The notes under the pieces: generated by a model | Databases searched by the model: none | What the model saw: the letters and a program-made list of their open reading frames with translations, nothing else | What the model was told of the DNA's origin: nothing | Translations under genes and position numbers: made by a program | NCBI GenBank assembly: GCA_017471785.1 | Contig: JAFURP010000021.1 | Coordinates: 1 to 64,000 of the forward strand | DNA from: Clostridia bacterium | Lineage (GTDB): Bacteria > Bacillota > Clostridia > Christensenellales > Borkfalkiaceae | Direction of reading: 5' to 3' | DNA: 64,000 nt | In this document: one piece after another, positions 46,056-61,802 of the stretch | Layout of the letters: each line of letters opens with the position of its first letter | Position numbering within the stretch: position 1 is the stretch's first letter

Positions 46056-46072
46056 TAGTTCCCTCAAGGAAT

Positions 46073-46726: not shown

Positions 46727-46783
46727 ATTTTTCCTCCCAATAGAATTACGTTATAATATTCCGAGCGCACAAGCAATATGCGT

Positions 46784-47602: not shown

Positions 47603-47629
47603 AGACTTCTCCTTTCGTTATAATTATTT

Positions 47630-47658
47630 ATTATAGCATATTTATTTCGTTTATGCAA
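47630..47658 (-). promoter_or_regulatory. Promoter of the HAD-mgtC-araM unit
   Basis: Minus strand: -35 TTGCAT (47653-47658), 17-bp spacer, -10 TATAAT (47630-47635) with extended TGC. It lies 28 bp before the HAD start codon, so these three genes can be transcribed apart from the glpA operon. Confidence 0.8.
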
Positions 47659-47675
47659 GCGATTTTGACTTGTCG

Positions 47676-48023
47676 TTACGCGTTTCCCGCAACGACGAGG
47701 TTTGCCTCGTCGGAAATATTTTCAACGAGTACGTCGCCGATTTTTACAGGTAATTCGCAGGTAGTTTGATTGATCTTCTTCATTATCTCGAAAATCTCGC
47801 TCTTTTTAACGGGTCTATCTGTTTTTACGGGTACCATCACGCCGTTTTTAGCGCGAACGGTAGAAGTAACCACGCGTTTGGGGCAAACGACCTCGTTTTC
47901 CGCATACAATTTACCGCGCGGACAGCCGTTACCCTTTACGGATACGGGGTTGCCGTTCTCCATTTCCACCTCTAAGGCGCAACCGATGGGACATTCGATA
48001 CAAGTCAACGATATAACGCTCAT
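47676..48023 (-). CDS. DUF1667 Cys-rich protein
   Basis: 115 aa. Four N-terminal Cys (SLTCIECPIGC and GNGCPRGKLYAENEVVCPKR) suggest an Fe-S cluster or Zn site. Proteins of this family are encoded with GlpA- and GlpB-like flavoproteins in Bacillota and probably pass electrons on. The start overlaps the flavoprotein stop as ATGA; a longer frame to 48173 is a shadow. Confidence 0.88.
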   Translation of the reverse strand: MSVISLTCIECPIGCALEVEMENGNPVSVKGNGCPRGKLYAENEVVCPKRVVTSTVRAKNGVMVPVKTDRPVKKSEIFEIMKKINQTTCELPVKIGDVLVENISDEANLVVAGNA

Positions 48024-49276
48024 ACGTTTTCCTCCAACACTACTTCGATCTTTCCGTTTGTTTGTGCAATTTTCGCTTCCGTCAACAACAGCGTTTCCAT
48101 TTCCCCCGGTACGACGATCTTTTTCTTGCGCTGTAAAAGCACCGTATCGCCGCATTTTACCGTGATCGTACAATCGCGGAAGGTATTGGTAACGCGGAAG
48201 AACAGCTTCACGTTGCCGCCGATATTCTTATCCAAGCGCTGAGGTACGACGTAGCCGATATTACTGCCGTTGACCACTTCCACTCCGTCGTGCTCGATCG
48301 CGCCCTCTAATACGTATTTCGCTGCATAAACGCCCGCCAGCTCCGATTCCTCGGAAACGAAATCCACGAGGTCGTGGACCTGCAAAACGTTGCCGCAGGC
48401 AAAAACGCCGCTTACGAGCGTTTCGCGGTTTTGATATACCACCGCGCCGCGCGTTCTCGGAGAAAGCTCGATCTCCGCGCCTTTCGTGAGTTCGTTTTCG
48501 GGAATCAAACCGACCGAGAAAAGCACCGTATCGCAATCGAAATGCATTTCCGTACCCGAAATAGGCTTTTTATCCTTATCTACCTCGGATATGACGACGC
48601 CCGTTACCCGTTTGTCCCCCTCGATCCTCGTGATCGTATGATTGAGGTAAAGTGGAATATTGAAATCGTCCAAGCATTGCGCTATATTACGCTTCAAACC
48701 GCTCGAATAGGGCATAATCTCGCAAACGGCGTGCACCTTGGCTCCCTCGAGCGTCATACGCCGTGCCATGATCAAGCCGATATCCCCCGAGCCGAGAATA
48801 ACGACGCTTTTCCCGGGCATATATCCTTTTATATTCACGTATTTTTGCGCCGTACCCGCAGAATAAACGCCTGCCGGTCTACTCCCCGCCACATTGAGCG
48901 CGCCGCGGCTTCTTTCCCTACAGCCCATAGCGAGAATAACCGCTTTTGCCTCTACCGTAAATACGCCGTATTCCGTATTGATCGCCGTGATCTTTTTATC
49001 TTTCGTCAACGAAAGCACCGTCGTTTGCGTGAAAACCTCTATATTGCGCGCAAGCACTCCGTCAACGAAGCGCGCCGCGTATTCGGGGCCAGACAGGCTT
49101 TCCTTAAACCGCGTCAAACCGAAGCCGTTATGGATGCATTGATTGAGAATACCGCCCAAACGTTCCTCACGCTCCAAGATCAATATATCTTTCGCGCCGT
49201 TATCGTACGCGGCTATCGCAGCCGCAAGTCCTGCAGGTCCACCGCCGATCACGACGATATCGTAATAATTTTTCAT
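48020..49276 (-). CDS. FAD-dependent pyridine nucleotide-disulfide oxidoreductase (GlpB-like subunit)
   Basis: 418 aa. N-terminal FAD motif VIGGGPAGLAAAIAAYDNGAKDILILEREERLGG, the second NAD-binding motif VVILGSGDIGLIMARRMTLEGA and a GVFACGNVLQVHDLVDFVSEES segment at the FAD site. It resembles the alpha chain of sarcosine/proline oxidases. Encoded between GlpA-like and DUF1667 proteins, it is probably the middle subunit of an anaerobic glycerol-3-phosphate dehydrogenase. Confidence 0.88.
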   Translation of the reverse strand: MKNYYDIVVIGGGPAGLAAAIAAYDNGAKDILILEREERLGGILNQCIHNGFGLTRFKESLSGPEYAARFVDGVLARNIEVFTQTTVLSLTKDKKITAINTEYGVFTVEAKAVILAMGCRERSRGALNVAGSRPAGVYSAGTAQKYVNIKGYMPGKSVVILGSGDIGLIMARRMTLEGAKVHAVCEIMPYSSGLKRNIAQCLDDFNIPLYLNHTITRIEGDKRVTGVVISEVDKDKKPISGTEMHFDCDTVLFSVGLIPENELTKGAEIELSPRTRGAVVYQNRETLVSGVFACGNVLQVHDLVDFVSEESELAGVYAAKYVLEGAIEHDGVEVVNGSNIGYVVPQRLDKNIGGNVKLFFRVTNTFRDCTITVKCGDTVLLQRKKKIVVPGEMETLLLTEAKIAQTNGKIEVVLEENV

Positions 49277-50703
49277 TTGCTCACCCCCGTAACGAGCGCC
49301 GACCCCTCGCCGTTTTTCGTAACCTGTTCAAATGGAATACCAAGCTCTCGCGCAATGATCTCCGCGACGTGCGGTTGACAAAAGCCGCCTTGGCATCTAC
49401 CCATACCTGCGCGCGTTCTACGCTTTACCGCGTCCACGTTTTTAGCCGGCGGATTTTCGCGAACGGCGCGAACGATTTCACCTTCGGTGATTTGTTCACA
49501 TCTACAAACGATCCTTCCGTACGAGGGGTCGTTTTTAATGATCTCGTTCTTCTCCTCGTTAGATAGATCCTTAAAGTAATGATCGGCTTTTCTTCTTCCG
49601 TTAAAGCTTTCGTTTCGTTCAAGCTTTACGATATTACCGACGAGCTCCTCCACCACGTATTTTGCGATCGCAGGCGCGGAGGTCAACCCGGGGGATTCGA
49701 TACCGGCGCAATGGATAACGCCCGCCGTTCTCTTGCTTTCTTCGATGATAAAATCGTGCCTGCTCGAATAAGCGCGAACGCCGGCAAAAGAGGTGATCGT
49801 GTTGAAAAGAGGCGCATTTTTCGTCATTTTTCTCACCTTTTCGATCACGAACGCAAGCCCCGAAGCGGTCGTATCCGTAGAGGCTACTTCCATTTCCTCG
49901 GAAGTGGGTCCGAGTAAAATATTTCGATCCGCCGTTTGCGTGACCAAAATCCCCTTTCCTTTTTCCGTCGGCGTAAAGAAAAGCGTATGCGAAACGAAAT
50001 CTCCGCTTTCTCTGTCCAATAAGATATATTCGCCCTTTCTTGCTTTAACCTCAATATCGTTATCGCCCACCATAGCCGCAATTTTACCGCTTGCAAGCCC
50101 CGCGCAGTTGATCACGAGTTTTCCCTCGACCGTTTCGCCTTTCGTCGATCTTACCGTAAATACGGCGCCGTTTTTGTCGATGGCCCCCACTTCGAAATCG
50201 GTATATAACTTGGCTCCGTTATCCATAGCGTTGCCGATCGCGGCGATCGTTAAGCCGTACGGGCAAACGATACCGCCCGTTTTGGCGTGTAATGCACCCA
50301 TCGCTTCCTCCGAAATATTCGGCTCTAACGCGCGAAGCTGCTCTTGATCGATAATTTCCATATCGCTTACGCCGTTTTTCTCACCGCGTTCTTTCAACTG
50401 CGCGAGCGTTTGCATTTCCCCCTCGGAAAACGCAACGACGAGCGAGCCGTTGTTGACGAATTTTACCCCCAGCTCCGCGGTGTAAGCGGGCATCATCATA
50501 TTGCCGAGCACGTTAAATTTCGCTTTCAAGGTATCGGGCGCGGCGTCGAAGCCCGCGTGTACGATACCGCTGTTCGCCTTGCTTTGTCCCATACAAACGT
50601 CGTTCTCTTTTTCCAAAAGGCAAACGGAAAGCTTATATTTTGTCAGTTCACGAAGGATCGTGCCGCCCACGACGCCTCCGCCGATTACGATAACGTCAAA
50701 CAT
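49273..50703 (-). CDS. Anaerobic glycerol-3-phosphate dehydrogenase, GlpA-like, with 2Fe-2S domain
   Basis: 476 aa. DAO-type FAD domain with DVIVIGGGVVGGTILRELTKYKLSVCLLEKE. At the C-terminus a BFD-like cluster-binding domain has CRCEQIT...RRTRAGMGRCQGGFC. It oxidises glycerol 3-phosphate to DHAP. Its 3' end overlaps the next gene by 4 nt. It begins the operon, divergent from the DeoR regulator. Confidence 0.9.
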   Translation of the reverse strand: MFDVIVIGGGVVGGTILRELTKYKLSVCLLEKENDVCMGQSKANSGIVHAGFDAAPDTLKAKFNVLGNMMMPAYTAELGVKFVNNGSLVVAFSEGEMQTLAQLKERGEKNGVSDMEIIDQEQLRALEPNISEEAMGALHAKTGGIVCPYGLTIAAIGNAMDNGAKLYTDFEVGAIDKNGAVFTVRSTKGETVEGKLVINCAGLASGKIAAMVGDNDIEVKARKGEYILLDRESGDFVSHTLFFTPTEKGKGILVTQTADRNILLGPTSEEMEVASTDTTASGLAFVIEKVRKMTKNAPLFNTITSFAGVRAYSSRHDFIIEESKRTAGVIHCAGIESPGLTSAPAIAKYVVEELVGNIVKLERNESFNGRRKADHYFKDLSNEEKNEIIKNDPSYGRIVCRCEQITEGEIVRAVRENPPAKNVDAVKRRTRAGMGRCQGGFCQPHVAEIIARELGIPFEQVTKNGEGSALVTGVSK

Positions 50704-50728
50704 TTTTTACTCCTTTTTATAAAACAAC

Positions 50729-50757
50729 TTGACATATTAGCTTATTTATATTATAAT
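50729..50757 (+). promoter_or_regulatory. Consensus promoter of the DeoR regulator gene
   Basis: -35 TTGACA (50729-50734), 17-bp spacer, -10 TATAAT (50752-50757), a perfect consensus. The distance to the start codon at 50866 is long (about 110 bp). Confidence 0.8.
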
Positions 50758-50777
50758 ACAAATAAGCAAATAAGCAA
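50738..50777. promoter_or_regulatory. glpA promoter overlapping the deoR promoter, with operator repeats
   Basis: Minus-strand promoter: -35 TTGCTT (50772-50777), 16-bp spacer, -10 TATAAT (50750-50755). Its -10 overlaps the -10 of the opposite promoter. AATAAGCA occurs twice in tandem (50761-50776), with an inverted match TAGCTTATT at 50739-50747. These are the likely DeoR sites. Confidence 0.7.
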
Positions 50778-50865
50778 AGTGATTTGCAAAAATTGCAAAT
50801 ATGACAAGAAAAAAGGAAAAATTCGCAAAAAACTTCTTTTGTTTTTTGCGAAACGAGCAAAAACT

Positions 50866-51615
50866 ATGAAAGAAAACCAAGAAAAGGATATCCTTGAGAT
50901 TTTGCAAAACAATCAATACGCAACGATCGACGAGCTCGCCGCGAAATTATTCGTCAGCGCCTCTACTATTCGAAGAAAATTGGACGTACTCCAAAAGAAA
51001 GGGCTTGTAACCCGTACGCACGGCGGCGCGCAGCTTAACGACGATAATAATTTCTTCCCGAGCTTCACCTTTCGCGTACACGAAAACAGCTTTGAGAAGA
51101 AAAAGATCGCTCTTTCGGCGATCAAGCTGATCAAAAACGGCGACCTGATCTTCCTTGACGGTACGACCTCCGCTTTCTTTATCGCGGAATATTTGTCCGA
51201 ATTTAAGAATATACGCGTGATCACGAACGGCATTGACACCCTTTCCCTGCTTGCGAAAAACAATATCGCCGCATACTCGACGGGCGGTTGCGTACAGGAG
51301 CTGAACAGATCGGTGCTCGTAGGGCACTACGCCGAGGAAATGATCAAGAATTTCCACGCCGATATCGCGTTCTTCTCCGCTCGGTCGGTGGATAGCAACG
51401 GGGAAATTTACGATTGCTTTGAAGAAGAAAACGTGATCCGAAAGGCAATGATCAAACACGCGACCAAAAAGGTATTCCTTTGCGACAGTACGAAGTTCGG
51501 CAAGACCTCCCTTTTTCATCTTTGCTCGCTCAACGACGTCGATTATATCGTCAGCAACCACACCGTTCCCGACTTCGTAAAGGTCGATAAATTACCGCAG
51601 TTGATCACCGATTAA
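50866..51615 (+). CDS. DeoR/GlpR family transcriptional regulator
   Basis: 249 aa. N-terminal HTH (ATIDELAAKLFVSASTIRRKLDVLQKKGLVTRTHGGA) and a C-terminal sugar-phosphate sensing domain (DLIFLDGTTSAFFIAEYL, VITNGIDTLSLL, ADIAFFSARSVDSNGEIYD). It is probably induced by glycerol 3-phosphate or a related metabolite and represses the divergent glpA operon. The frame extends far back into glpA, but ATG 50866 is the family start. Confidence 0.9.
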   Translation: MKENQEKDILEILQNNQYATIDELAAKLFVSASTIRRKLDVLQKKGLVTRTHGGAQLNDDNNFFPSFTFRVHENSFEKKKIALSAIKLIKNGDLIFLDGTTSAFFIAEYLSEFKNIRVITNGIDTLSLLAKNNIAAYSTGGCVQELNRSVLVGHYAEEMIKNFHADIAFFSARSVDSNGEIYDCFEEENVIRKAMIKHATKKVFLCDSTKFGKTSLFHLCSLNDVDYIVSNHTVPDFVKVDKLPQLITD

Positions 51616-51651: not shown

Positions 51652-51682
51652 AAAAGAACACCGCAAAACGGTGTTCTTTTTT
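51652..51682. terminator. Bidirectional terminator between deoR and GH88
   Basis: AAAAGAACACCG and CGGTGTTCTTTT make a 12-bp stem around CAAAA, with T-runs on both strands, between convergent genes. Confidence 0.9.
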
Positions 51683-51752: not shown

Positions 51753-52904
51753 TTACCAAGCTAAGAAATCCGTTCCCTTTAATTTCAATATAGCCTCCGC
51801 AAAGAAATAGTCGCCGTAAATGATCGGCATATGTTGTTCTTTGTCGTACATCAGGCTACCCATTTGTAGGATCGAATCCTCCTCGTCCGTCCAATCGCAC
51901 CACTCTCTTTCCATCGCTTTCAAAATATATAACGCGGCGGAAAGGTATTTTTCCTTTTCGTTTTCGTCCACGAGCTTTGCAAGCTCTATCAAACCGCAAG
52001 CTGCGATCGCGCCTGCCGTCGAATCGTAATAAAGCGGCGTTTCCGGTTGACGAAAATCCAATCTCGGAAGCCATTCCGTTTTTTTCGTTTCTTTTATGAA
52101 ATATTCCGCCACCTTTTTCGCCGTAACCAAATATCTTTGCTCGTCGGTATGGATATACGAAAGCGTAAAACCGTACAACGCCCAGCCTGCGCCTCTAGAC
52201 CAACAGGAATCCTCCGCGTAGCCTTGTCCCTTTCTTACGCCGAGCACGGTATCCGCCTTTTGGGTATCGTGTATGACGATATGATTGACCGAGCCGTCCT
52301 CGCGAACGTGATCGCGTATAGACATATCCGCGTGGCGCATAGCGATCTTGGCAAACCGCGGATCGCCGATCTCCTTGCTCGCCCAATATAAAATGGGAAT
52401 ATTCATCATACAATCGATGATCGACCAGCCCGACCTGTCCTCTCCGTCCTTTCTGCCGTTCCAACAACGGATAAAATTCCCGTCCACGTTATAACGACTC
52501 ATAAGCGACATTGCCGCGATCAAATTGCGGTTTTTCGAAGCGACGTTCCCCGTAAGACGGTAATTTACGCCGCTGGTCAAATGCCACATAAATCCGACGT
52601 CGTGATTCAAACCGTCCATATAGTTGAAAGCCGCGTCCAACTTTCTTTCCGATGCCTCCGCAGTCGATTTATAACACTCTTTCCTCGTCCCGACGTACAT
52701 TTGCCACATCAAACCGCCCCAAAAACCGTTCGTCCACGTCAAAACGTCTTTACCCTTGGCACGATCGTCGTGTTCGCCGTTTTTCGTGGTATACGGAATT
52801 TTATTGCGGCTTTTTACCGCCGTCTTGGAAAGCTTTTCGTCCAACTTTTTCCAAGTAGCTTCTATCCATTCCCTATTTTCCGCGATCATAGTTTCATAAC
52901 TCAT
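51753..52904 (-). CDS. GH88 unsaturated glucuronyl hydrolase
   Basis: 383 aa, (alpha/alpha)6 barrel type. Marks: DVLTWTNGFWGGLMWQMYVGT, DVGFMWHLTSGVNYRLTG (catalytic Asp region), GYAEDSCWSRGAGWALYGF and YYDSTAGAIAACGLIEL. It cleaves the unsaturated uronic acid from oligosaccharides made by polysaccharide lyases (glycosaminoglycan, ulvan or similar). Together with KduI and KduD genes in the same operon it yields 5-keto-4-deoxyuronate for catabolism. No signal peptide, so cytosolic. Confidence 0.92.
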   Translation of the reverse strand: MSYETMIAENREWIEATWKKLDEKLSKTAVKSRNKIPYTTKNGEHDDRAKGKDVLTWTNGFWGGLMWQMYVGTRKECYKSTAEASERKLDAAFNYMDGLNHDVGFMWHLTSGVNYRLTGNVASKNRNLIAAMSLMSRYNVDGNFIRCWNGRKDGEDRSGWSIIDCMMNIPILYWASKEIGDPRFAKIAMRHADMSIRDHVREDGSVNHIVIHDTQKADTVLGVRKGQGYAEDSCWSRGAGWALYGFTLSYIHTDEQRYLVTAKKVAEYFIKETKKTEWLPRLDFRQPETPLYYDSTAGAIAACGLIELAKLVDENEKEKYLSAALYILKAMEREWCDWTDEEDSILQMGSLMYDKEQHMPIIYGDYFFAEAILKLKGTDFLAW

Positions 52905-52926: not shown

Positions 52927-53724
52927 TTATTTAGGCTGTTTCCCTATGTAAGCCAAAATACCCCCGTCTACGTAAAGAATATGTCCGTTGACAAAGTTCG
53001 ATGCTTCGCTCGCAAGGAACACCGCGGGTCCCGCCAGATCTTCGGGATTTCCCCAACGCGCCGCCGGCGTTTTTGCGATAATAAAGCTGTCGAACGGATG
53101 TCGGGAGCCGTCCGCCTGTCTTTCACGGAGCGGCGCCGTTTGCGGCGTGGCGATATACCCGGGACCTATACCGTTGCATTGAACGTTATATTCGCCGTAT
53201 TCGCTCGCAATATTTTTCGTGAGCATCTTCAAGCCGCCCTTCGCCGCCGCATACGCCGAAACGGTTTCTCTACCGAGCTCGCTCATCATCGAACAAATAT
53301 TGATGATCTTACCGCCTCCTTTTTTGATCATGGACGGGATAACGGCTTTTGCACAAATGAACGGCGCGTTCAAATCTACGTCGATGACCTGACGGAATTC
53401 CTTGGCGCTCATCTCGCACATAGGGATACGCTTAATGATCCCCGCGTTGTTGACGAGAATATCGATCACGCCGACCTCCTTTTCCACCGTCGCAACGAGC
53501 GCGTTTACGGCGTCCTCGTCCGTTACGTCGCAAACGTAGCCGTGCGCTTGGATACCTTCCGCCTCGTACGCCGCCAAGCCCTTATCCACGAGCTCTTGCT
53601 TGATATCGTTAAAAACGATAGTAGCCCCCGCCCGTGCAAACGCCTTTGCGATCGCAAAGCCGATACCGTAGCTCGCACCCGTAACGAGCGCGATTTTTCC
53701 TTTCAAAGAAAACATATTTTCCAT
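52927..53724 (-). CDS. kduD: SDR oxidoreductase, KduD/gluconate 5-dehydrogenase-like
   Basis: 265 aa. Rossmann motif TGASYGIGFAIAKAF, NNAG, catalytic Ser in NICSMMSELG, Y-x3-K in YAAAKGG. By context it reduces 2,5-diketo-3-deoxygluconate (the KduI product) to 2-keto-3-deoxygluconate. It is also close to gluconate 5-dehydrogenases. kdgK and kdgA, which would follow, are not in the window. Confidence 0.85.
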   Translation of the reverse strand: MENMFSLKGKIALVTGASYGIGFAIAKAFARAGATIVFNDIKQELVDKGLAAYEAEGIQAHGYVCDVTDEDAVNALVATVEKEVGVIDILVNNAGIIKRIPMCEMSAKEFRQVIDVDLNAPFICAKAVIPSMIKKGGGKIINICSMMSELGRETVSAYAAAKGGLKMLTKNIASEYGEYNVQCNGIGPGYIATPQTAPLRERQADGSRHPFDSFIIAKTPAARWGNPEDLAGPAVFLASEASNFVNGHILYVDGGILAYIGKQPK

Positions 53725-53729
53725 TTTTC

Positions 53730-55403
53730 TTACTCCTTTGCTCTTTTTATTCTTATCCGAACTTCTACCGCTTTCTTACCGCTTGCGATATACCCTTTGT
53801 AAACGCCGTTCCGATTGAGTAATTCCATACGCAAATCCGTAAGATTTTCCGTTTGATATTCGCAAACCCAACCCTCGTATTCCACGGACAGCTTTTCGTT
53901 ATTTTCGGATATTTTCGTACTCGTTTCCCCGTCGAACGAAAACACGGGCAAGCAAATTCCGAGCTCCTCTTGGTTTTCGCTCGTCGCCTGCAACAAAACG
54001 CCGTCTTTATCAACCGAACAAATAAAGTTCACCGTTTTGTTATCGCCGAAATCGCATACGAACCGCATGCGGCTCGTAGCTTTTTCGTCTACGAACGTAT
54101 AGCTCGCTTCGTTTCCAGCGCCGAAAATCCAACGCTCCTTATCCGTCTTTATCGCAGGACAAATGGAAAAATCCGTTTCGTTTTTACGTTCGCCCAGCTT
54201 ATACCACGGCTCTTTTGCAAACGGCATAGACAGGCAGATCGCGCTCGGCGCGTTCGCTTTATGGATCCTACCCAAGCCCGAGCCTTCGTAATGCAAGTCC
54301 GCGCAAGTATCCGCTTCGAGAAAGTACCCGTTTTTATTCAAAAATACTTTATGAAAAGCGTCGCCCGTTTTCGAAATGAAGCCGCCGCATTCGGCTGGAC
54401 AAGCGACCTCCGCGATCGAAGACGTATCCAAAAACAACGCGGGATAGATCACCGAAGCAAGCGTGATCATATATTTATCGAAATAGGCGTACCCCTCGCA
54501 ACCGAAAAAGCTATCCTGCGAATATCGGTTTTTAACGTGCTTACTGGGTACGAATTCAAGCCATTTTTCGATCGCTTCCAATGCTAAATTTGCCGCGCGG
54601 ACGAATTGTCCCGCCTTTTCAAGCTCTCCCCGCTTTTTATAGCGCAAAGCCTCGAATTTATACAAAACGACCAAGTTCGCTTCGTTATGTAAAAATTGGT
54701 TGCTCCTGCCCCCGTAAGGGATTTCACCCGTAACCGATTGCATTCGTAGCGTTAACAATCCCGACTTTTCCAACAAGACGTCCATTTCTTTACGGTACTT
54801 TCCGTTATAGCCGAAATGTAGCATCAACGCAAGCCGATAACGCGCAACGAGATCGTACAAAATAGGCGCGTGCGGATCTATATACATACCGTTTTCATCG
54901 AAAAGGCGTAATTGCGTAGCAATTTGTTTATCTACAAAATCACGCTCCTCGCTCATTCCCGTATAGACCCTAAGCCATTCGCTTGACGCACCGAACAACG
55001 CCCAATTATGAAGCTTCTCGGGAGGAAGAGTATACACCTGCTTATATAGATCGAAAGCACAAGCGGAAGAAAGCTGCGTTTTCCAGCCTTGCAGCCTTTC
55101 TTTTTCCACAAAATCCGATCTCTCCAATTCCAAAAGCAACAAACAAAGCTCCACCACGGAAAATTCGTTCGCGGCTTTTACTTTGGGTATCTGCTCGCAA
55201 CAAATATCCATCATTTCAAAAAAGACGGGCGTTAATTCTCTTTTTCTATTGTAAGCGATCAAAATACCTATATTAGCCGCAAGACGGGACAAGCTTTGAT
55301 CGGTAAGCCCGGCGTCTTTTACTTTTCGGGTATAATTTTTCAAGCGTTCCACGGAATAACATTCCAAAGCGCGCTCCATTACGTTGAGATAACGTTCTTT
55401 CAT
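53730..55403 (-). CDS. Unassigned 557-aa protein of the uronate operon
   Basis: The N-terminal ~330 residues are helical with repeated hairpins, as in (alpha/alpha)n toroids, and contain EIPYGGRSNQFLHNEA; the last ~200 residues are beta-rich (HKVFLNKNGYFLEADT onward). That arrangement, toroid plus beta-sandwich, is common in heparinase-type polysaccharide lyases and related hydrolases, and the operon suggests uronic acid substrates. No signal peptide. I do not recognise the family; a lyase or hydrolase for oligouronides is the working idea. Confidence 0.7.
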   Translation of the reverse strand: MKERYLNVMERALECYSVERLKNYTRKVKDAGLTDQSLSRLAANIGILIAYNRKRELTPVFFEMMDICCEQIPKVKAANEFSVVELCLLLLELERSDFVEKERLQGWKTQLSSACAFDLYKQVYTLPPEKLHNWALFGASSEWLRVYTGMSEERDFVDKQIATQLRLFDENGMYIDPHAPILYDLVARYRLALMLHFGYNGKYRKEMDVLLEKSGLLTLRMQSVTGEIPYGGRSNQFLHNEANLVVLYKFEALRYKKRGELEKAGQFVRAANLALEAIEKWLEFVPSKHVKNRYSQDSFFGCEGYAYFDKYMITLASVIYPALFLDTSSIAEVACPAECGGFISKTGDAFHKVFLNKNGYFLEADTCADLHYEGSGLGRIHKANAPSAICLSMPFAKEPWYKLGERKNETDFSICPAIKTDKERWIFGAGNEASYTFVDEKATSRMRFVCDFGDNKTVNFICSVDKDGVLLQATSENQEELGICLPVFSFDGETSTKISENNEKLSVEYEGWVCEYQTENLTDLRMELLNRNGVYKGYIASGKKAVEVRIRIKRAKE

Positions 55404-55428: not shown

Positions 55429-57108
55429 TTATAACAAATCTTTATTTTCGATATGGTCCATATCGGTAAATTCTTGGTTCTCACCGCACATTGCCCAAAT
55501 AAACGAATAGTTCTTCGTGCCAACGCCTGAGTGGATAGACCAAGACGGCGAGATAACCGCTTCTTCGTTGTGCATAATGATATGTCTGGTTTCCGTCGGC
55601 TCGCCCATCATGTGGAATACGACGTCGTTTTCGCCCATATCCAAATACATATACACTTCCATTCTTCTATCGTGCGTATGACAGGGCATCGTGTTCCAGT
55701 TCGAGCCCACTTCCAGCTGGGTTAAACCCATAGCAAGCTGACAGCTCTTCATAACCTCGGGGTGTATGTATTGATTGATCATGCGTTTATTGCATTCTTC
55801 TACGCTACCGCAAGGCACTTTCTTCGCTTTCGTAATATCAATTTTTACCGTAGGATAGGCGGTGTGTGCAGGGCAGGAGCTTACGTAGAATTTTGCAGGT
55901 GCGTTTTCGTCTACACTCTTAAACGTGATTTCTTTATTTCCCATACCGATATACATACCGTCGCGGGGATTCATTTCATATTCTTTGCCGTCTACCGTAA
56001 TAATACCTTTACCGCCGATATTGATACAGCCCATTTCTCTTCTTTGCAAGAAATAATCCGCCGCAAGCTCTTTACCTGCCTCTAATTTCAAGACTTGTCT
56101 TACAGGCATAAGTCCTGCCGTAATGATACGGTCGATATGGCTATATACCATTCTTACGTTGTCCTTCGTGAAAAGATTTGCGATATGAAATTCTTCTCTC
56201 AATCTTTCCGTCGTGTAGTGCTTTACGTCCTTTGCATTGCTTGCTTGTCTTACTTCCATTTTACTAAAATCCTCCATAATGTATTGTCCGTAAACCTCGA
56301 TTTGCGTTAGTGCCGCAAAGCTCAAAATTTCCGTGACTTGTGTAAAATTAAAAAGTTTTATTGTTTTCGTTTTCTTCGTCTGCTTTAATACGATTTCTAT
56401 GCCTTTTTCGTTTTCGGGGTTTAAGTCCGTATTATCAAGCGTAAACTCACCCTTTACGATTTCCCCGTCCGAAAACCGGATATCTATATTCTTCCAATAG
56501 CTGTCGTGCGGTATGCCCGTTTTTGCGTCGTGCTTGAAGTCCGCGCGAAGATAAAATACTAATTTACTTACTTCCACTTCTCGACCAAAGTCAAGCGTAT
56601 ATTCCAAATCGTTTCTCGCTCCACCTGCCCACGAATGATAAGGATACGAGCCGTGTCCTTGGTTATTCTTTTCGCCGTCGATTGCGTTTCTCTCGTAAAA
56701 GCAAGGCTCTTCCCTCGTTACGAAGTTTGCGCTCGCGTGCGGATAACCGCCCGTTTTTCGCCGTAAATCGTGGGAATTTAACGCAATATTTCTCGCCGCG
56801 TGAAATTCGTCGTCCTCCACTTCTCGCACGCATATCGTATGCTCTTTACCTTGAAACGCATTGGGAGCATATCCCATTTTTAATTCCCTTGCACTCGGAA
56901 TGGTAAAGCAAAAGCTTTTATTTGGACAATAGACGTAGCTTTCCTGCATACTTGGGTCAAGCTTTACGGCAAGCCGATTCGTTCCGTCTAATCGGATATA
57001 AATTTCGTCGCCTTCGCCAAATTCGCCCTGATAGGTTTCTTTAATTACCGCTCCTTGCGCCGTAAATTTCACTTGCTTGTTTTTATCTTTGATGGTTAAA
57101 TATAGCAT
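55429..57108 (-). CDS. kduI: 5-keto-4-deoxyuronate isomerase KduI with an N-terminal extra domain
   Basis: 559 aa, about twice the normal KduI. Residues ~285-559 are a full KduI: MEVRQASNAKDVKHYTTERLREEFHI at the start, KFYVSSCPAHTAYPT, and the metal motif MPCHTHDRRMEVYMYLD. Residues 1-280 are beta-rich with a discoidin/galactose-binding flavour (NAIDGEKNNQGHGSYPYHSW, DLEYTLDFGREVEVSKLVFYLR). An SD, GGAGG, 11 nt before the Met at residue 285 (56256) could start a separate 275-aa KduI. Enzyme role: 5-keto-4-deoxyuronate to 2,5-diketo-3-deoxygluconate. Confidence 0.88.
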   Translation of the reverse strand: MLYLTIKDKNKQVKFTAQGAVIKETYQGEFGEGDEIYIRLDGTNRLAVKLDPSMQESYVYCPNKSFCFTIPSARELKMGYAPNAFQGKEHTICVREVEDDEFHAARNIALNSHDLRRKTGGYPHASANFVTREEPCFYERNAIDGEKNNQGHGSYPYHSWAGGARNDLEYTLDFGREVEVSKLVFYLRADFKHDAKTGIPHDSYWKNIDIRFSDGEIVKGEFTLDNTDLNPENEKGIEIVLKQTKKTKTIKLFNFTQVTEILSFAALTQIEVYGQYIMEDFSKMEVRQASNAKDVKHYTTERLREEFHIANLFTKDNVRMVYSHIDRIITAGLMPVRQVLKLEAGKELAADYFLQRREMGCINIGGKGIITVDGKEYEMNPRDGMYIGMGNKEITFKSVDENAPAKFYVSSCPAHTAYPTVKIDITKAKKVPCGSVEECNKRMINQYIHPEVMKSCQLAMGLTQLEVGSNWNTMPCHTHDRRMEVYMYLDMGENDVVFHMMGEPTETRHIIMHNEEAVISPSWSIHSGVGTKNYSFIWAMCGENQEFTDMDHIENKDLL

Positions 57109-57127: not shown

Positions 57128-58336
57128 TTATTTTTCAGACATGATATAATGTACGTTGTTTTTTAAGTCGTGTAAAGACGCCCCCCAAACCGCGTTAAAA
57201 TAAAGCCGTCCGTCGCGCTCGTTGTCTTCCTTCGTTCTGGTTTCACCCGTTAAGCCGTGCCCGTATAAGAATACGTCCGCTTGGATACTTAGGTCAATTT
57301 TCCAAACCTCGTGGCAAACGCATACACGCTTTCCACATAACGACAAAACGGTATTCCGCGGTACGATTTCCGTATTCGGCGCAAGCTCTTTCAAATCTTC
57401 CACCAAATCGTTATTGCCTGCAACGATAACGACGCGCGCGCCTGAGCGCTCCATCATTTTCAAAATTTTACTCGCCGAGCGTTTCCAGTACGGGCGCACG
57501 CTCTCAATTCTACCCGCTTTCAGCTCGTCGGAAAGGTCGCCCGTATGAATAATTACGTCCGGCTTAACGCTCTCAATCAAGCTTTGATAATAAGGATAAT
57601 CCGCTGAATGTGTATCGCCGATATGCAATACCCTTTTTTGAGCTTTGGGTATTTGCATAGCTACGTTTGTCATATCCAACGTAAGCCGAGCCGTTCGTTC
57701 CTTATACAACAAATCGTTTTCCGTCCGCAGATGAGTCGGTAAGTGCGTGCAATCGTTAGCGTACGTTTTCTCACCGTCGGCATATAAAAGCGATAAATGG
57801 CAGTTCCAGTGAAAGTCTACATTTTCCGTAACGTTAAACAAATGCCGTAGCGCAACCGAAACCGTTCCATGTCCCACAAGCAATACGTCCGTAGCTTTCG
57901 GGAGCTGAGATAATACAGTTTTTAGCTCCGTTTTTAAGCGTTCAATTACGTCCGCCAAATCTTCCTTACTATCCCCCCACCAAATATTCGGAAATTTTTC
58001 ATCAAAGCAAACGTGAGAATACTTTTGGGCAAGCTCTTGCGCCGTCGTGCCTTGGTAAAATTCGTCCACTCTCGTTATAATTTCACGCAAAGACGCCAAG
58101 GGGGTTACGTTTGTTCCTAATTCTTCCGCAAGGATGCTCGCCGTTTCCAACGCTTTATCGTACGGCGACGAAAAAATAACGCCTTTGAATTGCAAATCCT
58201 TTAATCGCTGAGCCAAAAGCCTTGCCTGCTCTCTTCCAAGTGGACTTAAAGGAGCGTTCCCAACGGGCAAAGACCAGTCGTTTTTATAATATTCTTGAGA
58301 TGCTACCTGACCATGCGTCGTTTCAAATATTCTCAT
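57128..58336 (-). CDS. Fusion of a histidine phosphatase-like and a metallophosphoesterase domain
   Basis: 402 aa. Residues ~1-200 are phosphoglycerate mutase-like: THGQ takes the place of RHG, SSPYDKALETASILAEELG and VGHGTVSVALRHLF follow. Residues ~235-400 are a calcineurin-like phosphoesterase: HIGDTHSADYPYY, HTGDLSDE, VAGNNDLVE and FLYGHGLTGE. The first domain lacks the Arg of RHG, so its activity is open. It overlaps the PHP gene by 4 nt, so it is coupled. Substrate unknown. Confidence 0.85.
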   Translation of the reverse strand: MRIFETTHGQVASQEYYKNDWSLPVGNAPLSPLGREQARLLAQRLKDLQFKGVIFSSPYDKALETASILAEELGTNVTPLASLREIITRVDEFYQGTTAQELAQKYSHVCFDEKFPNIWWGDSKEDLADVIERLKTELKTVLSQLPKATDVLLVGHGTVSVALRHLFNVTENVDFHWNCHLSLLYADGEKTYANDCTHLPTHLRTENDLLYKERTARLTLDMTNVAMQIPKAQKRVLHIGDTHSADYPYYQSLIESVKPDVIIHTGDLSDELKAGRIESVRPYWKRSASKILKMMERSGARVVIVAGNNDLVEDLKELAPNTEIVPRNTVLSLCGKRVCVCHEVWKIDLSIQADVFLYGHGLTGETRTKEDNERDGRLYFNAVWGASLHDLKNNVHYIMSEK

Positions 58337-59910
58337 TGATCGCGCTCCTGTATCTTCGTATTTTCATGCACCAAATAAATGGGATTAGAAAAAGCAATCA
58401 ATACGTTCTCGTCGCTATAAATTTCCACCCTTGCAAAATTATACTCGTTTTCACAGGATAACGTCCACGAGCCTGCAACCCGTCCGTTTTCAATCGGAAT
58501 ACGCTCTATTTCTTTTCCGTTCGTAATACAAACGGCGTAGCCACCGCATTGAATATCCGACGCGCTAAACGCAACACATGCGCGCTCCCCTTTGATTACG
58601 CTCCCTTGTTCTTTACCGTCAGCCGAAAAAACAAGGTTCTTTATCACGACGGGATTACCAGCCCAAAGCGAACCACGCTTCAACGCTTTCACGAAATGTT
58701 CTTCCGTCGGTTCTTCGTCGTCGTATAAGCCTGCAAAGGAACAAAAATTATTCCCTTCCGTCCAGCAATCTTCTCTTGCATGATGATTATCGCTATCGCC
58801 ATTCCCCGTAATAAAAATTCCTTTTTCGGACAATCTGTCCCAAAGCCTTAAATAATCCTTTGCCTCAAAGGTATCACGCCCTATAGGAAATCCGACTTCA
58901 ATGACGCTTGCGCCATATACGCGCGTTTCTAATAATTCCGATACGACCATTTCAAACGCTTCGGCTTTATTTTCCAAATGCCTATGCCTAGTAAAAGGAT
59001 GATTCCACGAAAAAATACCGCCGTGTTTTTTTACGTGCTCGATTGCATATTCGTTACTTACCTTATAGCCCAAGCTTTCGTAATTGATTACGGGTACTTT
59101 TGTGGAAAATACGTTCTTATGATTGCCTGCATGGGTAATTTCAAAGCCAACGAATGCTTGCACTCCCCACTTTTGACTAAGACGCTTAGCAAGCTTGATT
59201 TGTTCTTGACGAACTTCTTCAAAATTCAATTCCCGTCGAAAAGCAAACGAATGAAACAGAATTTCACCGCCGTTTTCGGCTATTAAGCGTATATTGCAAA
59301 GCGCGTTATCTAATCCGCCGATTTCTTCGCTTGCGTCCAAGCTCAAAGCAAATACGTAAACCCCGTTTTCCTTTTTAGGGAACGGCATATATTGCACAAG
59401 CTCGTCTGCGCTCTTTTGGGGCATATCGCCAAGCACGTAGCAAAGTCGCGCTTGGGTATACGTAGGCGGTTGCGCCGATAAAATAAATTCAACGCGTACC
59501 TGCCCGCTTTCTTTAACGTCTATATCCGCGCCCAGCTCTACCGTCAGCTTGGAAAACAACGGGTCGGCGTGCGCTTTATCCTTTGAATAAAAAAGTAAGC
59601 TTTCTTTTTCGTTTTCCTGCGCTTTTATGGAAAGTGCAAGAGCGTTTCCCGTTTCTTCGAAGGCATAACTACCGCCGTTTTCTTCTTCCTTAAAGCCTGC
59701 TTTTGCACCACTTGGAAGCGTAATAAACAACTCCTTTTCGGAAAAACGAAATTCGGGAACGTCCCGTTTCTTTTTACCCATACGAACGTCGTGCTCCGTC
59801 GTCCACATATGCATAATACCCAAATTTTTGCAAAGCGACATCGTCGACCCGAGCGAAGCCGTCGGTTCGTGTGAGCAATGCAAATGCATATGTATCGGAT
59901 AATATTTCAT
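58333..59910 (-). CDS. PHP-domain metallohydrolase (CehA/McbA-like)
   Basis: 525 aa. N-terminal metal motif HMHLHCSHEPTASLGS and TEHDVRM, later FVGFEITHAGNHKN, FSWNHPFTRHRH and TGNGDSDNHHARED give the His/Asp metal ligands of PHP enzymes. A beta-rich insert (~50-225) and a C-terminal Ig-like part (~430-525) flank the core. PHP proteins act on phosphoesters. Uncharacterised in uronate operons. Confidence 0.75.
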   Translation of the reverse strand: MKYYPIHMHLHCSHEPTASLGSTMSLCKNLGIMHMWTTEHDVRMGKKKRDVPEFRFSEKELFITLPSGAKAGFKEEENGGSYAFEETGNALALSIKAQENEKESLLFYSKDKAHADPLFSKLTVELGADIDVKESGQVRVEFILSAQPPTYTQARLCYVLGDMPQKSADELVQYMPFPKKENGVYVFALSLDASEEIGGLDNALCNIRLIAENGGEILFHSFAFRRELNFEEVRQEQIKLAKRLSQKWGVQAFVGFEITHAGNHKNVFSTKVPVINYESLGYKVSNEYAIEHVKKHGGIFSWNHPFTRHRHLENKAEAFEMVVSELLETRVYGASVIEVGFPIGRDTFEAKDYLRLWDRLSEKGIFITGNGDSDNHHAREDCWTEGNNFCSFAGLYDDEEPTEEHFVKALKRGSLWAGNPVVIKNLVFSADGKEQGSVIKGERACVAFSASDIQCGGYAVCITNGKEIERIPIENGRVAGSWTLSCENEYNFARVEIYSDENVLIAFSNPIYLVHENTKIQERDQ

Positions 59911-59941
59911 CAGCTTTCTTCCTTGTTTTTTCTTTACTTTC

Positions 59942-60838
59942 TTATTTCCACAAAGTAATTCTTAAATCGTCCATATCGACGACAATCGTTTGCGACTCGT
60001 GGAAATTTTTATCTTTTACCGTATCCCACAAAAACCTGTTATACGGATATTGCTCCGATTGACACCAAGGGTCATTGTAAAAACGGTCCGCTTTTTGTGG
60101 CCAAAAACAAATTTTTGGCGCAATTTTACGATATAACTCTACGATTAAAGGATAATCGCTTGCTCTTGCCACCGCTAAGCCGTGGTGCGGTACTTGCATA
60201 ACGTCGCTTTTTAACATTTCGTCCGTACAATAAATAGGCGAATCGGGTTCAAGCAATTTTACAAGTCTGTCCCCTTGCGCATCGCCTAGCACTAAAAAGC
60301 TCGTACCGCAAGAAAACGTAAATTTCAAAATCGCGCTCGTATGATTTCGGCTTGTAGGCGGGTCGGGATATTTTTCAAACGCCGTCGTGAAAACGTTCAC
60401 TTTCACGTTATCAAAGGTAAACTCGTCGCCCGTTTTTAATACGCTTACTTTCGTGTTTGATAATTTTTCAACCGCATTAAACCACATTTCTTCGGCAAGC
60501 GCGTCACCGCGACCGCTCGTTTTATCAAAACCGCTATAATCTACGTCTTTGGGAATATTGTAAGCTATCGTTTGAATTTCCACGTCGTTTTTATATTCTT
60601 CCATAAACCTTGCGGAAAGCTTAATATGGTCCCTATGTCCGTGTGTGAAAAACCAACCGGCAATTATCGGTTTTTCCCCTTGCGCTTTTTCGCAGAGATA
60701 GCGAAACACGCGCTCCCCGTCCACGTCAAAATGCTCGCCACCGTCAATCAAAACGAAACGACCGTCGGTAAGCTGAATAACGTAAGCCATACCGCCTTTC
60801 ATTTCCATTTGTGCCACAGACGTTTTTATATTTTCCAT
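59942..60838 (-). CDS. MBL-fold metallohydrolase
   Basis: 298 aa. Marks: VLIDGGEHFD, metal motif FFTHGHRDHIKLSARF, LVLGDAQGDRL and PHHGLAVARASDYPLI. It resembles the ComEC/Rec2-type MBL group, of unknown substrate. First gene of the operon, next to the divergent AraC regulator. RBS AAGGAG. Confidence 0.85.
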   Translation of the reverse strand: MENIKTSVAQMEMKGGMAYVIQLTDGRFVLIDGGEHFDVDGERVFRYLCEKAQGEKPIIAGWFFTHGHRDHIKLSARFMEEYKNDVEIQTIAYNIPKDVDYSGFDKTSGRGDALAEEMWFNAVEKLSNTKVSVLKTGDEFTFDNVKVNVFTTAFEKYPDPPTSRNHTSAILKFTFSCGTSFLVLGDAQGDRLVKLLEPDSPIYCTDEMLKSDVMQVPHHGLAVARASDYPLIVELYRKIAPKICFWPQKADRFYNDPWCQSEQYPYNRFLWDTVKDKNFHESQTIVVDMDDLRITLWK

Positions 60839-60921: not shown

Positions 60922-60950
60922 TTGACATATTTATATCAAAACGTTATAAT
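60922..60950 (+). promoter_or_regulatory. Consensus promoter of the araC-type gene, predicting a leaderless mRNA
   Basis: -35 TTGACA (60922-60927), 17-bp spacer, -10 TATAAT (60945-60950), a perfect match. The ATG at 60957 lies 7 bp after the -10, exactly where transcription would start, so no RBS can be present. Confidence 0.85.
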
Positions 60951-60956
60951 ATAAAT

Positions 60957-61802
60957 ATGACAAACAAAGATTTTCACTATACTTCTCCAAATTTAATTTC
61001 TTATTCGCACAAATTCTTGCCGGCGTCAAAAAAGCAACATCTTTCCTACGTGTCGGAATCTCACCGCTTAGTAGAAATTATGCTCGTCGTGCAAGGCAAG
61101 ATGCACTATACCATCGACGGCGCGCAATACGTTGCCAACGAAGGCGATATCGCCGTAATCAACGCAGGTGAATTTCACTCTTCGCGTGCAAGTCACGTTA
61201 CGCTTTGTGAAAGACTGATTTTACACTTTTCCACAAACTCTATCCCCGTTTTCAAATCCGTCGCACCGATGAACGCATTTCAAAAAGCGAGCTTGTATCA
61301 ACATATCATTCCAAAAGAAGTCGTTCAAAAAACGAAAATGCTTTCCCTTTTCAAAAAAATCGAAGTACTTTGCAAAAGCGACGATTTATATAAGGACTTA
61401 AAACTTTTTTCCTTGTTAATTTCTTGTATTGCGGAACTCAATTTCGCCGTCGACCTTTTAACGACTAAAAACCACTACATTCCAGCGCCGATAGAAACAA
61501 ACGACCTATTCAAATCGACAATCGATTATATCAACGAAAATATTCAAAAACCGCTCCCCATCTCTACGGTAGCGCAATATATAGGCGTAAGCGAGTCTTA
61601 TTTGCATCGCTTATTCAAACAAAATATGGGAATTTCTATGTTAAACTATATCCAAAACCAAAAAATGCAACTTGCGCTTTCCCTGCTTAGAAAAGGACAT
61701 TCCGCACAAAGCGTTTCGGAAATGCTCGGCTACGAATATTACGCCACCTTTTCCAATACCTTCAAAAAAATCTTCAGTGCGCCCCCTAACGAATTCAAAT
61801 AA
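60957..61802 (+). CDS. AraC family transcriptional regulator
   Basis: 281 aa. N-terminal cupin sensor (EIMLVVQGKMHYTIDGAQYVANEGDIAVINAGEFHS) and C-terminal double HTH (LPISTVAQYIGVSESYLHRLFKQNMGISMLNYIQ, then SAQSVSEMLGYEYYATFSNTFKKIFSAPPNEFK). It probably activates the divergent uronate operon upon binding a uronic acid derivative. The frame has no upstream start, in line with a leaderless message. Confidence 0.93.
   Translation: MTNKDFHYTSPNLISYSHKFLPASKKQHLSYVSESHRLVEIMLVVQGKMHYTIDGAQYVANEGDIAVINAGEFHSSRASHVTLCERLILHFSTNSIPVFKSVAPMNAFQKASLYQHIIPKEVVQKTKMLSLFKKIEVLCKSDDLYKDLKLFSLLISCIAELNFAVDLLTTKNHYIPAPIETNDLFKSTIDYINENIQKPLPISTVAQYIGVSESYLHRLFKQNMGISMLNYIQNQKMQLALSLLRKGHSAQSVSEMLGYEYYATFSNTFKKIFSAPPNEFK

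What the first reader, a model, noticed from the sequence alone, without database searches (positions are those of the whole stretch)
53730..55403. Unassigned toroid-like protein, possible new oligouronide lyase or hydrolase
557 aa, cytosolic, toroid plus beta-sandwich arrangement with the motif GGRSNQFLHNE, encoded between KduI and KduD. No lyase family could be recognised by eye, yet the operon needs an enzyme that makes the unsaturated ends GH88 uses.
Basis: inference. Interest (0 to 1): 0.55.

Follow-up and report, generated by a model that had tools for sequence, protein, structure and literature searches.

The report
Likely sugar-acid dehydratase beside GH88
A bacterium carries an unclassified enzyme that most likely removes water from the end sugar acid of sugar chains, so that the enzyme made by a neighbouring gene can cut that sugar off.

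Summary
Window 53730-55403 (minus strand) encodes a 557-aa protein between KduI and a KduD-type reductase, with no meaningful Pfam, NCBIfam or PDB-sequence match. An AlphaFold2 model (pLDDT 95.7) shows the (alpha/alpha)6 toroid plus beta-sandwich of toroid lyases. It belongs to an unnamed family: 80 loci fetched, mainly Clostridia, 11 Lentisphaerota. The closest detectable sequence relative is not a lyase but DUF2264/GH154, whose members BcGDH and BT_3677 were shown in 2025 to be uronate dehydratases. Similarity is remote: 15 of 70 members hit weakly; profile-profile E 2e-4 (probability 46.6) against 0.49 reversed. Seven of ten BcGDH active-site residues are matched, including the proposed base Tyr (Y183), Arg (R233) and Asn (N133). 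The proposed acid Tyr289 is Phe237. Across the family, positions 36 (His) and 237 (Phe) tend to change together, a hint that the acid has moved; the window copy has Gln36. The genome holds KduI, GH88, KduD-type and this gene together twice; partners are 80-93% identical between cassettes, this protein 47%. Best reading: a terminal-uronate dehydratase serving GH88, a sister family of DUF2264. An exo-lyase stays possible; most relatives are not near GH88. No activity was tested.

The parts
53730..55403 (-). target gene, 557 aa (P0001), proposed terminal-uronate dehydratase
   Evidence: ORF and translation; family of 70 aligned; model
54408..55403 (-). (alpha/alpha)6 toroid domain, about residues 1-332
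   Evidence: AlphaFold2 secondary structure; Foldseek and VIA-align matches
53733..54386 (-). beta-sandwich domain, about residues 340-557
   Evidence: AlphaFold2; hhalign against Hepar_II_III_C-like neighbours aligns this part, E 0.012
54681..54713 (-). GGRSNQFLHNE motif, residues 231-241; R233 = BcGDH R285, F237 at the place of BcGDH Y289
   Evidence: G231, G232, R233, S234 in 70 of 70; F237 in 61 of 70, Tyr in 5; joint alignment
55005..55007 (-). codon of N133 (= BcGDH N177); W134 and F137 follow
   Evidence: N in 70 of 70; joint alignment
54855..54857 (-). codon of Y183 (= BcGDH Y229, proposed catalytic base)
   Evidence: Y in 70 of 70; joint alignment, gap placement uncertain by two residues
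55296..55298 (-). codon of Q36 (place of BcGDH E74; His in 61 of 70 aligned members)
54489..54491 (-). codon of Y305 (= BcGDH Y354)
   Evidence: Y in 70 of 70; joint alignment
51753..52904 (-). GH88 unsaturated glucuronyl hydrolase, last gene of the run
   Evidence: PF07470 E 3.1e-10; PDB 1vd5 E 2.8e-52, D102 and D164 aligned with D88 and D149 of that enzyme
52927..53724 (-). SDR, gluconate 5-dehydrogenase/KduD type
   Evidence: NF005488 E 1.4e-156 over cut-off; kduD TIGR01832 E 2.7e-70, below its cut-off
55429..57108 (-). KduI with about 280 extra N-terminal residues
   Evidence: NF002091 E 1.8e-134 at residues 284-558
57128..58336 (-). histidine-phosphatase plus calcineurin-like phosphoesterase fusion, same run of genes
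   Evidence: PF00300 E 1.9e-22, PF00149 E 9.3e-12
58333..59910 (-). CehA/McbA-type metallohydrolase, same run of genes
   Evidence: NF038032 E 1.2e-25, 90.7 bits over cut-off 80
59942..60838 (-). metallo-beta-lactamase-fold protein, first gene of the run
   Evidence: PF00753 E 6e-5
60957..61802 (+). divergent AraC-type regulator
   Evidence: PF12833 E 3e-18
51652..51680 (-). terminator-like hairpin, 13 pairs, after GH88
   Evidence: pattern scan; the total of such sites in the region is near chance (20 found, 15.3 expected)

Best explanation
It is a cytosolic uronate dehydratase of a new family that is sister to DUF2264/GH154. An oligosaccharide with a saturated uronic acid (probably GlcA) at its non-reducing end binds in the toroid. 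The invariant Tyr183, helped by Arg233, takes the C5 proton; Asn133 and Trp134 hold the uronate; water leaves from C4, giving a 4,5-unsaturated terminal uronate. GH88 then removes that residue, and KduI and the KduD-type reductase carry the released keto-deoxyuronate into central metabolism. Supported here by computation: fold, family, conserved residues, gene order, repeated linkage to GH88. Inferred: the reaction, the substrate, the roles of single residues, and which residue is the acid. In most relatives His36 may be the acid in place of BcGDH Tyr289; the window copy has Gln36, so its own acid is open.
For: Closest sequence family: DUF2264 in 15 of 70 members at E <= 0.1, best 2.7e-5; the other eight families hit one member each. 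hhalign E 2e-4, probability 46.6, against 0.49 for reversed DUF2264, 0.54 for GH88 and 0.012 for Hepar_II_III_C-like neighbours. Columns at least 95% conserved in both families with the same residue: 8 of 31, against 2 of 32 reversed, 1 of 59 (6 Hepar_II_III_C-like rows) and 1 of 53 (7 GH88 rows). Seven of the ten BcGDH residues whose alanine mutants were inactive are matched: R78, N177, W178, F181, Y229, R285, Y354. BcGDH makes the unsaturated end for a partner GH88 (PMC12269599). Window-type GH88 lies within 3 kb of 5 of 33 places of this family and 10 of 43 DUF2264 places, no place with both. The own genome has a second cassette KduI-GH88-target-KduD-type. On the tree the GH88-linked members need at least three gains or losses of the link, so it is not one recent copy. 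No gene over the DUF2264 or Hepar_II_III_C cut-off was found in the 83%-complete genome.
Against: The window protein itself has no DUF2264 match at E <= 1; hhalign probability is only 46.6; seven divergent members scanned alone gave no DUF2264 hit. The proposed acid Y289 is Phe, and E74 is Gln or His. Foldseek ranks PL33, PL35, PL12, PL17, PL15 and PL8 structures, and a few unrelated toroid proteins, above the dehydratase structures. Only 6 of 80 other loci hold a window-type GH88; 16 of 80 hold an OYE-type gene and 21 of 80 a 2-hydroxyacid dehydrogenase, and the OYE loci show no GH88. At an 80% threshold the control alignments shared nearly as many columns (16, against 9, 9 and 13). No coordinates were available, so pocket geometry was not inspected.
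Confidence: 0.58

Rival explanations
1. Exo-acting oligouronide lyase: it cleaves the bond to O4 of a uronate in oligosaccharides and leaves a 4,5-unsaturated end, which GH88 then removes.
For: Foldseek's top rows are PL33, PL35, PL12, PL17 and PL15 lyases over the full two-domain length; the beta domain resembles Hepar_II_III_C-like proteins (hhalign E 0.012); Asn plus Tyr is a pair used by toroid lyases (recalled); loci without GH88 exist, where a monomer-releasing lyase would need no GH88.
Against: No PL family model hit in 70 members at E <= 0.1 and no PDB sequence hit other than short phage-coat matches taken as chance; sequence kinship points to DUF2264, and a two-domain DUF2264 model has the same architecture.
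Confidence: 0.25
2. Uronate C5-epimerase that uses the same proton abstraction without elimination, as dermatan sulfate epimerase does on this fold.
For: Human dermatan sulfate epimerase 1 is the tenth row in the structure alignment, Z 18.8, rmsd 5.3, 488 residues.
Against: Gives no unsaturated end for GH88, KduI and KduD; no hit to that enzyme's sequence in the PDB profile search.
Confidence: 0.07
3. Hydrolase: an exo-beta-glucuronidase, as GH154 was first annotated.
For: GH154 members were reported as glucuronidase and galactosidase (quoted in PMC12269599).
Against: The same paper found no hydrolase activity in its purified protein and no hydrolase-type side-chain arrangement in that family; a hydrolase would release saturated GlcA, which does not need KduI.
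Confidence: 0.05

Closest known systems
BcGDH beta-D-glucuronate dehydratase (PDB 9o4u, 9nwf), DUF2264/GH154
   Same: Toroid fold; Arg, Asn-Trp, Phe, Tyr, Arg and Tyr of the active site in matching columns; partner GH88 in the same gene cluster.
   Different: BcGDH is about 400 aa without the beta-sandwich domain; its proposed acid Tyr289 is Phe237 here and Glu74 is Gln36 (His in most relatives); sequence similarity only at profile level.
Two-domain DUF2264 proteins of the same class (about 560-630 aa); BT_3677 is a two-domain member by the paper
   Same: Two domains; a model of one (L117, pLDDT 88.3) also matches toroid lyases over its full length. BT_3677 has dehydratase activity and a predicted second domain (PMC12269599).
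   Different: They score far over the Pfam cut-off; this family does not. BT_3677 itself was not compared.
Toroid polysaccharide lyases PL12, PL15, PL17, PL33, PL35
   Same: (alpha/alpha)6 toroid plus beta-sandwich; conserved Asn and Tyr (their role in the lyases is recalled).
   Different: No sequence-family match found; residue-level comparison not made.
P29_PDnc ulvan oligosaccharide dehydratase
   Same: Same proposed reaction, feeding GH105 in place of GH88 (PMC8511951, abstract and passages).
   Different: Not related in primary structure to BcGDH (PMC12269599); not compared with this protein here.

Membership tests
DUF2264 / GH154 (PF10022) | match over the curated cut-off of 25 bits | tested here: not met
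   no match at E <= 1 for the window protein; best in the own genome 13.9 bits, in the paralog
DUF2264 / GH154 (PF10022) | sequence homology detectable by profile comparison | tested here: inconclusive
   hhalign E 2e-4 but probability 46.6; controls 0.49, 0.54, 0.012
DUF2264 / GH154 (PF10022) | BcGDH Tyr229, Arg285, Asn177, Trp178, Phe181, Arg78, Tyr354 | tested here: met
   Y183, R233, N133, W134, F137, R40, Y305 in the joint alignment with DUF2264 proteins, carried to BcGDH and, for Y229, by eye through
DUF2264 / GH154 (PF10022) | proposed catalytic acid Tyr289, and Glu74 | tested here: not met
   F237 and Q36
DUF2264 / GH154 (PF10022) | dehydration of terminal GlcA | not testable with these tools
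   needs purified enzyme
toroid polysaccharide lyases (PL12, 15, 17, 33, 35) | (alpha/alpha)6 toroid plus antiparallel beta-sandwich | tested here: met
   model and structure matches
toroid polysaccharide lyases (PL12, 15, 17, 33, 35) | sequence match to a PL family model | tested here: not met
   no lyase model among the nine Pfam families hit by 70 members at E <= 0.1; no CAZy/dbCAN library was available, so PL families without a Pfam model are untested
toroid polysaccharide lyases (PL12, 15, 17, 33, 35) | catalytic His or Tyr from the beta-sandwich | tested here: inconclusive
   H351 in 67 of 70 and R379 in 69 of 70 are conserved, but no coordinates to place them; H371 is not conserved, 42 of 70
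GH88 / GH105 | sequence match to the family | tested here: not met
   no such Pfam hit; hhalign E 0.54 against seven window-type GH88 proteins

The most novel reading that the evidence does not exclude
A new family of terminal-uronate dehydratases in which the catalytic acid has moved from the Tyr of DUF2264 (BcGDH Tyr289) to a His at the place of Glu74. Positions 36 and 237 tend to change together: Tyr237 occurs in 1 of 96 rows with His36 and in 6 of 10 rows with another letter there. In a second operon type the unsaturated uronate would be handled by flavin ene-reductases and a 2-hydroxyacid dehydrogenase in place of GH88 and KduI.
Probability: 0.2. Interest if true: 0.68.

Novelty: new variant of a known kind. 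Interest (0 to 1): 0.5.

Why it matters
Enzymes that dehydrate the end sugar of a chain were first reported in 2021 (PMC8511951), and the DUF2264 kind in 2025 (PMC12269599). If this family is another, GH88 operons without a lyase gene make sense: the saturated end is first dehydrated. It would give a predicted function to an unnamed family of Clostridia and Lentisphaerota, and a natural experiment on where the catalytic acid sits. The two cassettes of one genome share near-identical KduD-type, KduI and GH88 proteins but have dissimilar copies of this one, which suggests that it sets substrate specificity.

Tried and rejected
Direct Pfam, NCBIfam and PHROGs scans and a PDB sequence search of the protein gave nothing of use (one NCBIfam row at E 0.19). 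The PDB profile search gave only phage coat proteins over 64 residues, best E 0.012, taken as chance. VIA-align's top rows were sugar epimerases, which like the GH48 and GH88 rows match only the toroid; the DUF2264 structures are not among its 50 rows, which shows nothing. An idea that H371 is the heparinase-type histidine was dropped: His in 42 of 70. Lyase_8 in the own genome: nothing, but the control was silent too, so it shows nothing. A search of 299 genomes of the phylum with the profile found matches in 2, the own genome and one with a 666-aa protein, E 3.3e-4, without Pfam hits; not followed. The Pfam scan of seven divergent members gave no DUF2264 hit, against my guess that they bridge the two families. 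The neighbour clusters put short-chain dehydrogenases together, so 'KduD' means SDR only. In 6 of 80 loci my ORF caller lost the target to an overlapping ORF (74 of 80 kept). Rows with a gap at position 36 (5 of 111) were dropped from the 36/237 count; the 111 rows are related and include duplicates of one gene, so the count is not a probability. For one search I joined the coordinates of the two pieces of the C44 paralog, and left out two second pieces and three short fragments (one in G258, two in G196).

Full report
Observation. The protein of 557 residues has no Pfam match at E <= 1, one meaningless NCBIfam row (E 0.19) and no PDB sequence match. It is a real family. A scan of GTDB genomes gave 111 stretches encoding relatives, of which the best 80 loci were kept, 37-47% identical in the best segment. 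By record titles 11 of the 80 are Lentisphaerota and one is Kiritimatiellota; nearly all the rest are named Clostridia, Clostridiales or Oscillospiraceae, and many titles name ruminant gut sites. In the window's class 27 of 391 genomes have a match, the own genome included. I collected 111 rows (some are one gene fetched twice) and aligned 70 of them, thinned to under 62% identity with seven fragments or duplicates left out by hand. Fourteen positions are invariant, among them N133, Y183, R188, GGRS 231-234, N292, Y305 and Y311.

Fold. AlphaFold2 with this alignment gives pLDDT 95.7 and pTM 0.94: long helices up to residue 324, then strands from 342. Foldseek's best PDB rows are toroid lyases PL33, PL35, PL12, PL17 and PL15 over both domains (E 1e-10 to about 1e-7, TM-score by query 0.35-0.55, rmsd 7-14); the glucuronate dehydratase BcGDH (9o4u, 9nwf) and GH154 8oi4 follow at E 4e-6 to 5e-5 for the toroid alone, with a few unrelated toroid proteins in between. 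VIA-align's first eight rows are sugar epimerases matched over the toroid alone (Z 19.5-20.3); PL35, PL12 and PL17 rows and human dermatan sulfate epimerase come at Z 16.3-18.9 over 449-488 residues.

Sequence kinship. Scanned one by one, 15 of the 70 members hit Pfam DUF2264 (E <= 0.1, best 2.7e-5); each of eight other families hit one member. The window protein is not among the 15: it has no hit at E <= 1, and its own-genome paralog reaches 12.5 to 13.9 bits against a cut-off of 25. I collected DUF2264 proteins from the same class (34 of 291 genomes) and aligned 21. hhalign between the two families gives E 2e-4, probability 46.6. Controls: the same DUF2264 proteins reversed 0.49, seven window-type GH88 proteins 0.54, six Hepar_II_III_C-like neighbours 0.012, there over the beta domain only. 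In a joint alignment, columns at least 95% conserved in both families with the same letter number 8 of 31, against 2 of 32 for reversed DUF2264, 1 of 59 for the Hepar_II_III_C-like set and 1 of 53 for GH88. At 80% the contrast is poor (16 against 9, 9 and 13). The eight are R40, N133, Y174, Y183, G232, R233, S234 and Y305. A model of a two-domain DUF2264 protein of this class (pLDDT 88.3) matches the GH154 structures best and then toroid lyases over its full length, so toroid plus beta-sandwich is not special to lyases.

What DUF2264 does. PMC12269599 (abstract, sections 9 and 10, and passages read) shows that BcGDH, classed as GH154, had no glycosidase activity once purified but dehydrates terminal GlcA of chondrosine so that the partner GH88 can remove it; BT_3677, the founding member, dehydrates methyl-glucuronate. 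Ten active-site residues were mutated to Ala, all inactive, though the authors note that chondrosine is a poor substrate. Numbering could be checked because the R285A mutant is in the PDB set (the letter at 285 is A in 9nwf and R in 9o4u). Carried over through L117, R78, N177, W178, F181, R285 and Y354 fall on R40, N133, W134, F137, R233 and Y305. Y229 falls on Y183, but less surely: L117 has an insert there, so phmmer's own alignment places Y229 elsewhere, and I matched it by eye through DUF2264 rows without the insert; in our family the loop before Y183 is two residues shorter. Not kept: E74 (Q36 here, His in 61 of 70), N176 (variable here, and variable in the 21 DUF2264 rows too), and the proposed acid Y289 (F237; Phe in 61 of 70, Tyr in 5).

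A coupled change. Among 106 of 111 rows with a letter at position 36, His36 is found in 96, of which 1 has Tyr237; of the 10 without His36, 6 have Tyr237. Of the nine Tyr237 rows, seven lie in the divergent 11-row group of the tree, one was not in the tree and one I did not trace; that group also has Phe237 rows. So this is a lead, not a test. It suggests that His36 does the work of Tyr289 in the core family. The window copy has Q36 and F237, so neither; among positions at least 93% conserved it departs at 249 (Lys for Glu) and 373 (Glu for Asp), while its own-genome paralog departs at none but one mostly gapped column. The window copy sits on a long branch (0.98) of the tree.

Neighbourhood. 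Seven genes on the minus strand from 60838 to 51753 lie 5 to 31 bases apart or overlap: MBL-fold, CehA-type, phosphatase fusion, KduI, target, SDR, GH88; a 13-pair terminator-like hairpin follows. GH88 keeps the two Asp that align with D88 and D149 of the Bacillus enzyme (their catalytic role is recalled). A second cassette lies on contig C44: KduI, GH88, target paralog, SDR, then three ORFs of 107, 244 and 183 aa (the last two without Pfam hits), GH4 and a DUF4832 protein. Between the two cassettes SDR is 93%, KduI 84%, GH88 80% and target 47% identical. Locus L005 reads DUF4838, GH35, GH95, KduI, target, SDR, GH88, Gfo/Idh; beta-galactosidase and GH95 with a terminal uronate would fit plant arabinogalactan side chains, which is inference. 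No lyase gene was seen in these three cassettes as far as scanned, and the genome (83% complete) has no match over the DUF2264 or Hepar_II_III_C cut-off; other lyase families were not searched, except Lyase_8 with a silent control.

The GH88 slot. Of 33 places of this family taken, 5 have a window-type GH88 (E <= 1e-30; 130 places in 66 of 391 genomes, at most four scored per genome) within 3 kb; two of these five are in the window's own genome. Of 43 DUF2264 places taken (291 genomes), 10 do. No place has both. By my rough arithmetic under one of 33 would be expected by chance. On the tree the label 'GH88-linked' (8 rows) needs at least three gains or losses, against 7.0 in shuffles; the window copy does not group with the C44 clade. 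The two families seem to fill the same role beside GH88.

Against. GH88 of this type is near only 6 of 80 relatives, many of these loci being cut by contig ends. A different gene set is commoner: OYE-type reductase (16 of 80), FAD reductase-like protein (17), TIM-barrel protein (12), 2-hydroxyacid dehydrogenase (21, of which 19 within 1.5 kb) and SDR (22); no GH88 of the window type is seen in the OYE loci. There the product may be handled differently, or the enzyme may release monomers as a lyase would. This is why the confidence stays near 0.6.

Literature. In the listed results of searches for DUF2264/GH154 (30 of 37 listed), dehydratase with GH88 (11 of 12), uronate dehydratase names (25 of 36) and oligosaccharide dehydratase names (7 of 7), I saw PMC12269599 and PMC8511951 (abstract and passages read) as primary reports of such enzymes. 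PMC13260240 (passages) uses the GH154 dehydratase assignment for haloarchaea. I saw no paper on the present family in those listings; nothing else was searched for it.

Verdict. A real, unnamed family with the toroid-lyase architecture and remote kinship to uronate dehydratases; most likely the enzyme that makes the unsaturated ends for GH88 by removing water. It fails the DUF2264 membership test on score and on the acid residue, so it is filed as a sister family, not as a member.

Noticed in passing
window 55429-57108: KduI carries about 280 extra N-terminal residues with only a weak F5/8 type C hit (E 0.0034); the KduI ORFs on C44 and in L005 are as long, while the L065 ORF as called (277 aa) starts at the KduI part.
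   Followed up: partly
window 57128-60838: Three genes with phosphoesterase-type folds (histidine phosphatase fused to calcineurin-like, CehA/McbA type, MBL fold) head the run; they were not seen in the C44 or L005 cassettes. A phosphate-bearing substrate is possible.
   Followed up: no
L021 and 15 other loci with the OYE gene: Commoner gene set for this family: OYE-type reductase, SDR, FAD reductase-like protein, often a TIM-barrel protein, 2-hydroxyacid dehydrogenase, target; function unknown.
   Followed up: partly
L017:11049-12713, L072:6273-7970 and L009, L015, L037, L074: A second family of about 555-603 aa sits in or near target loci; of two members scanned, one is over and one just under the Hepar_II_III_C cut-off; possible lyases.
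   Followed up: partly
L146:613-2610: A 666-aa protein followed by an ORF that looks like a transporter by eye; no Pfam hit; weak profile match to this family around the GRS region (E 3.3e-4).
   Followed up: partly
window 60922-60950: Perfect sigma-70 consensus (12 of 12, spacer 17) just upstream of the AraC gene.
   Followed up: no
window 61868-63997: 709-aa protein with a weak Big_2 hit (E 0.0028, below cut-off) and two similar halves by eye; its start lies at the window end and may be cut off.
   Followed up: no
window 44955-51615: Cluster of Fe-ADH type dehydrogenase, MgtC, HAD phosphatase, DUF1667 protein, two FAD oxidoreductases and a DeoR regulator; by eye a glycerol or sugar-phosphate catabolic set.
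   Followed up: no
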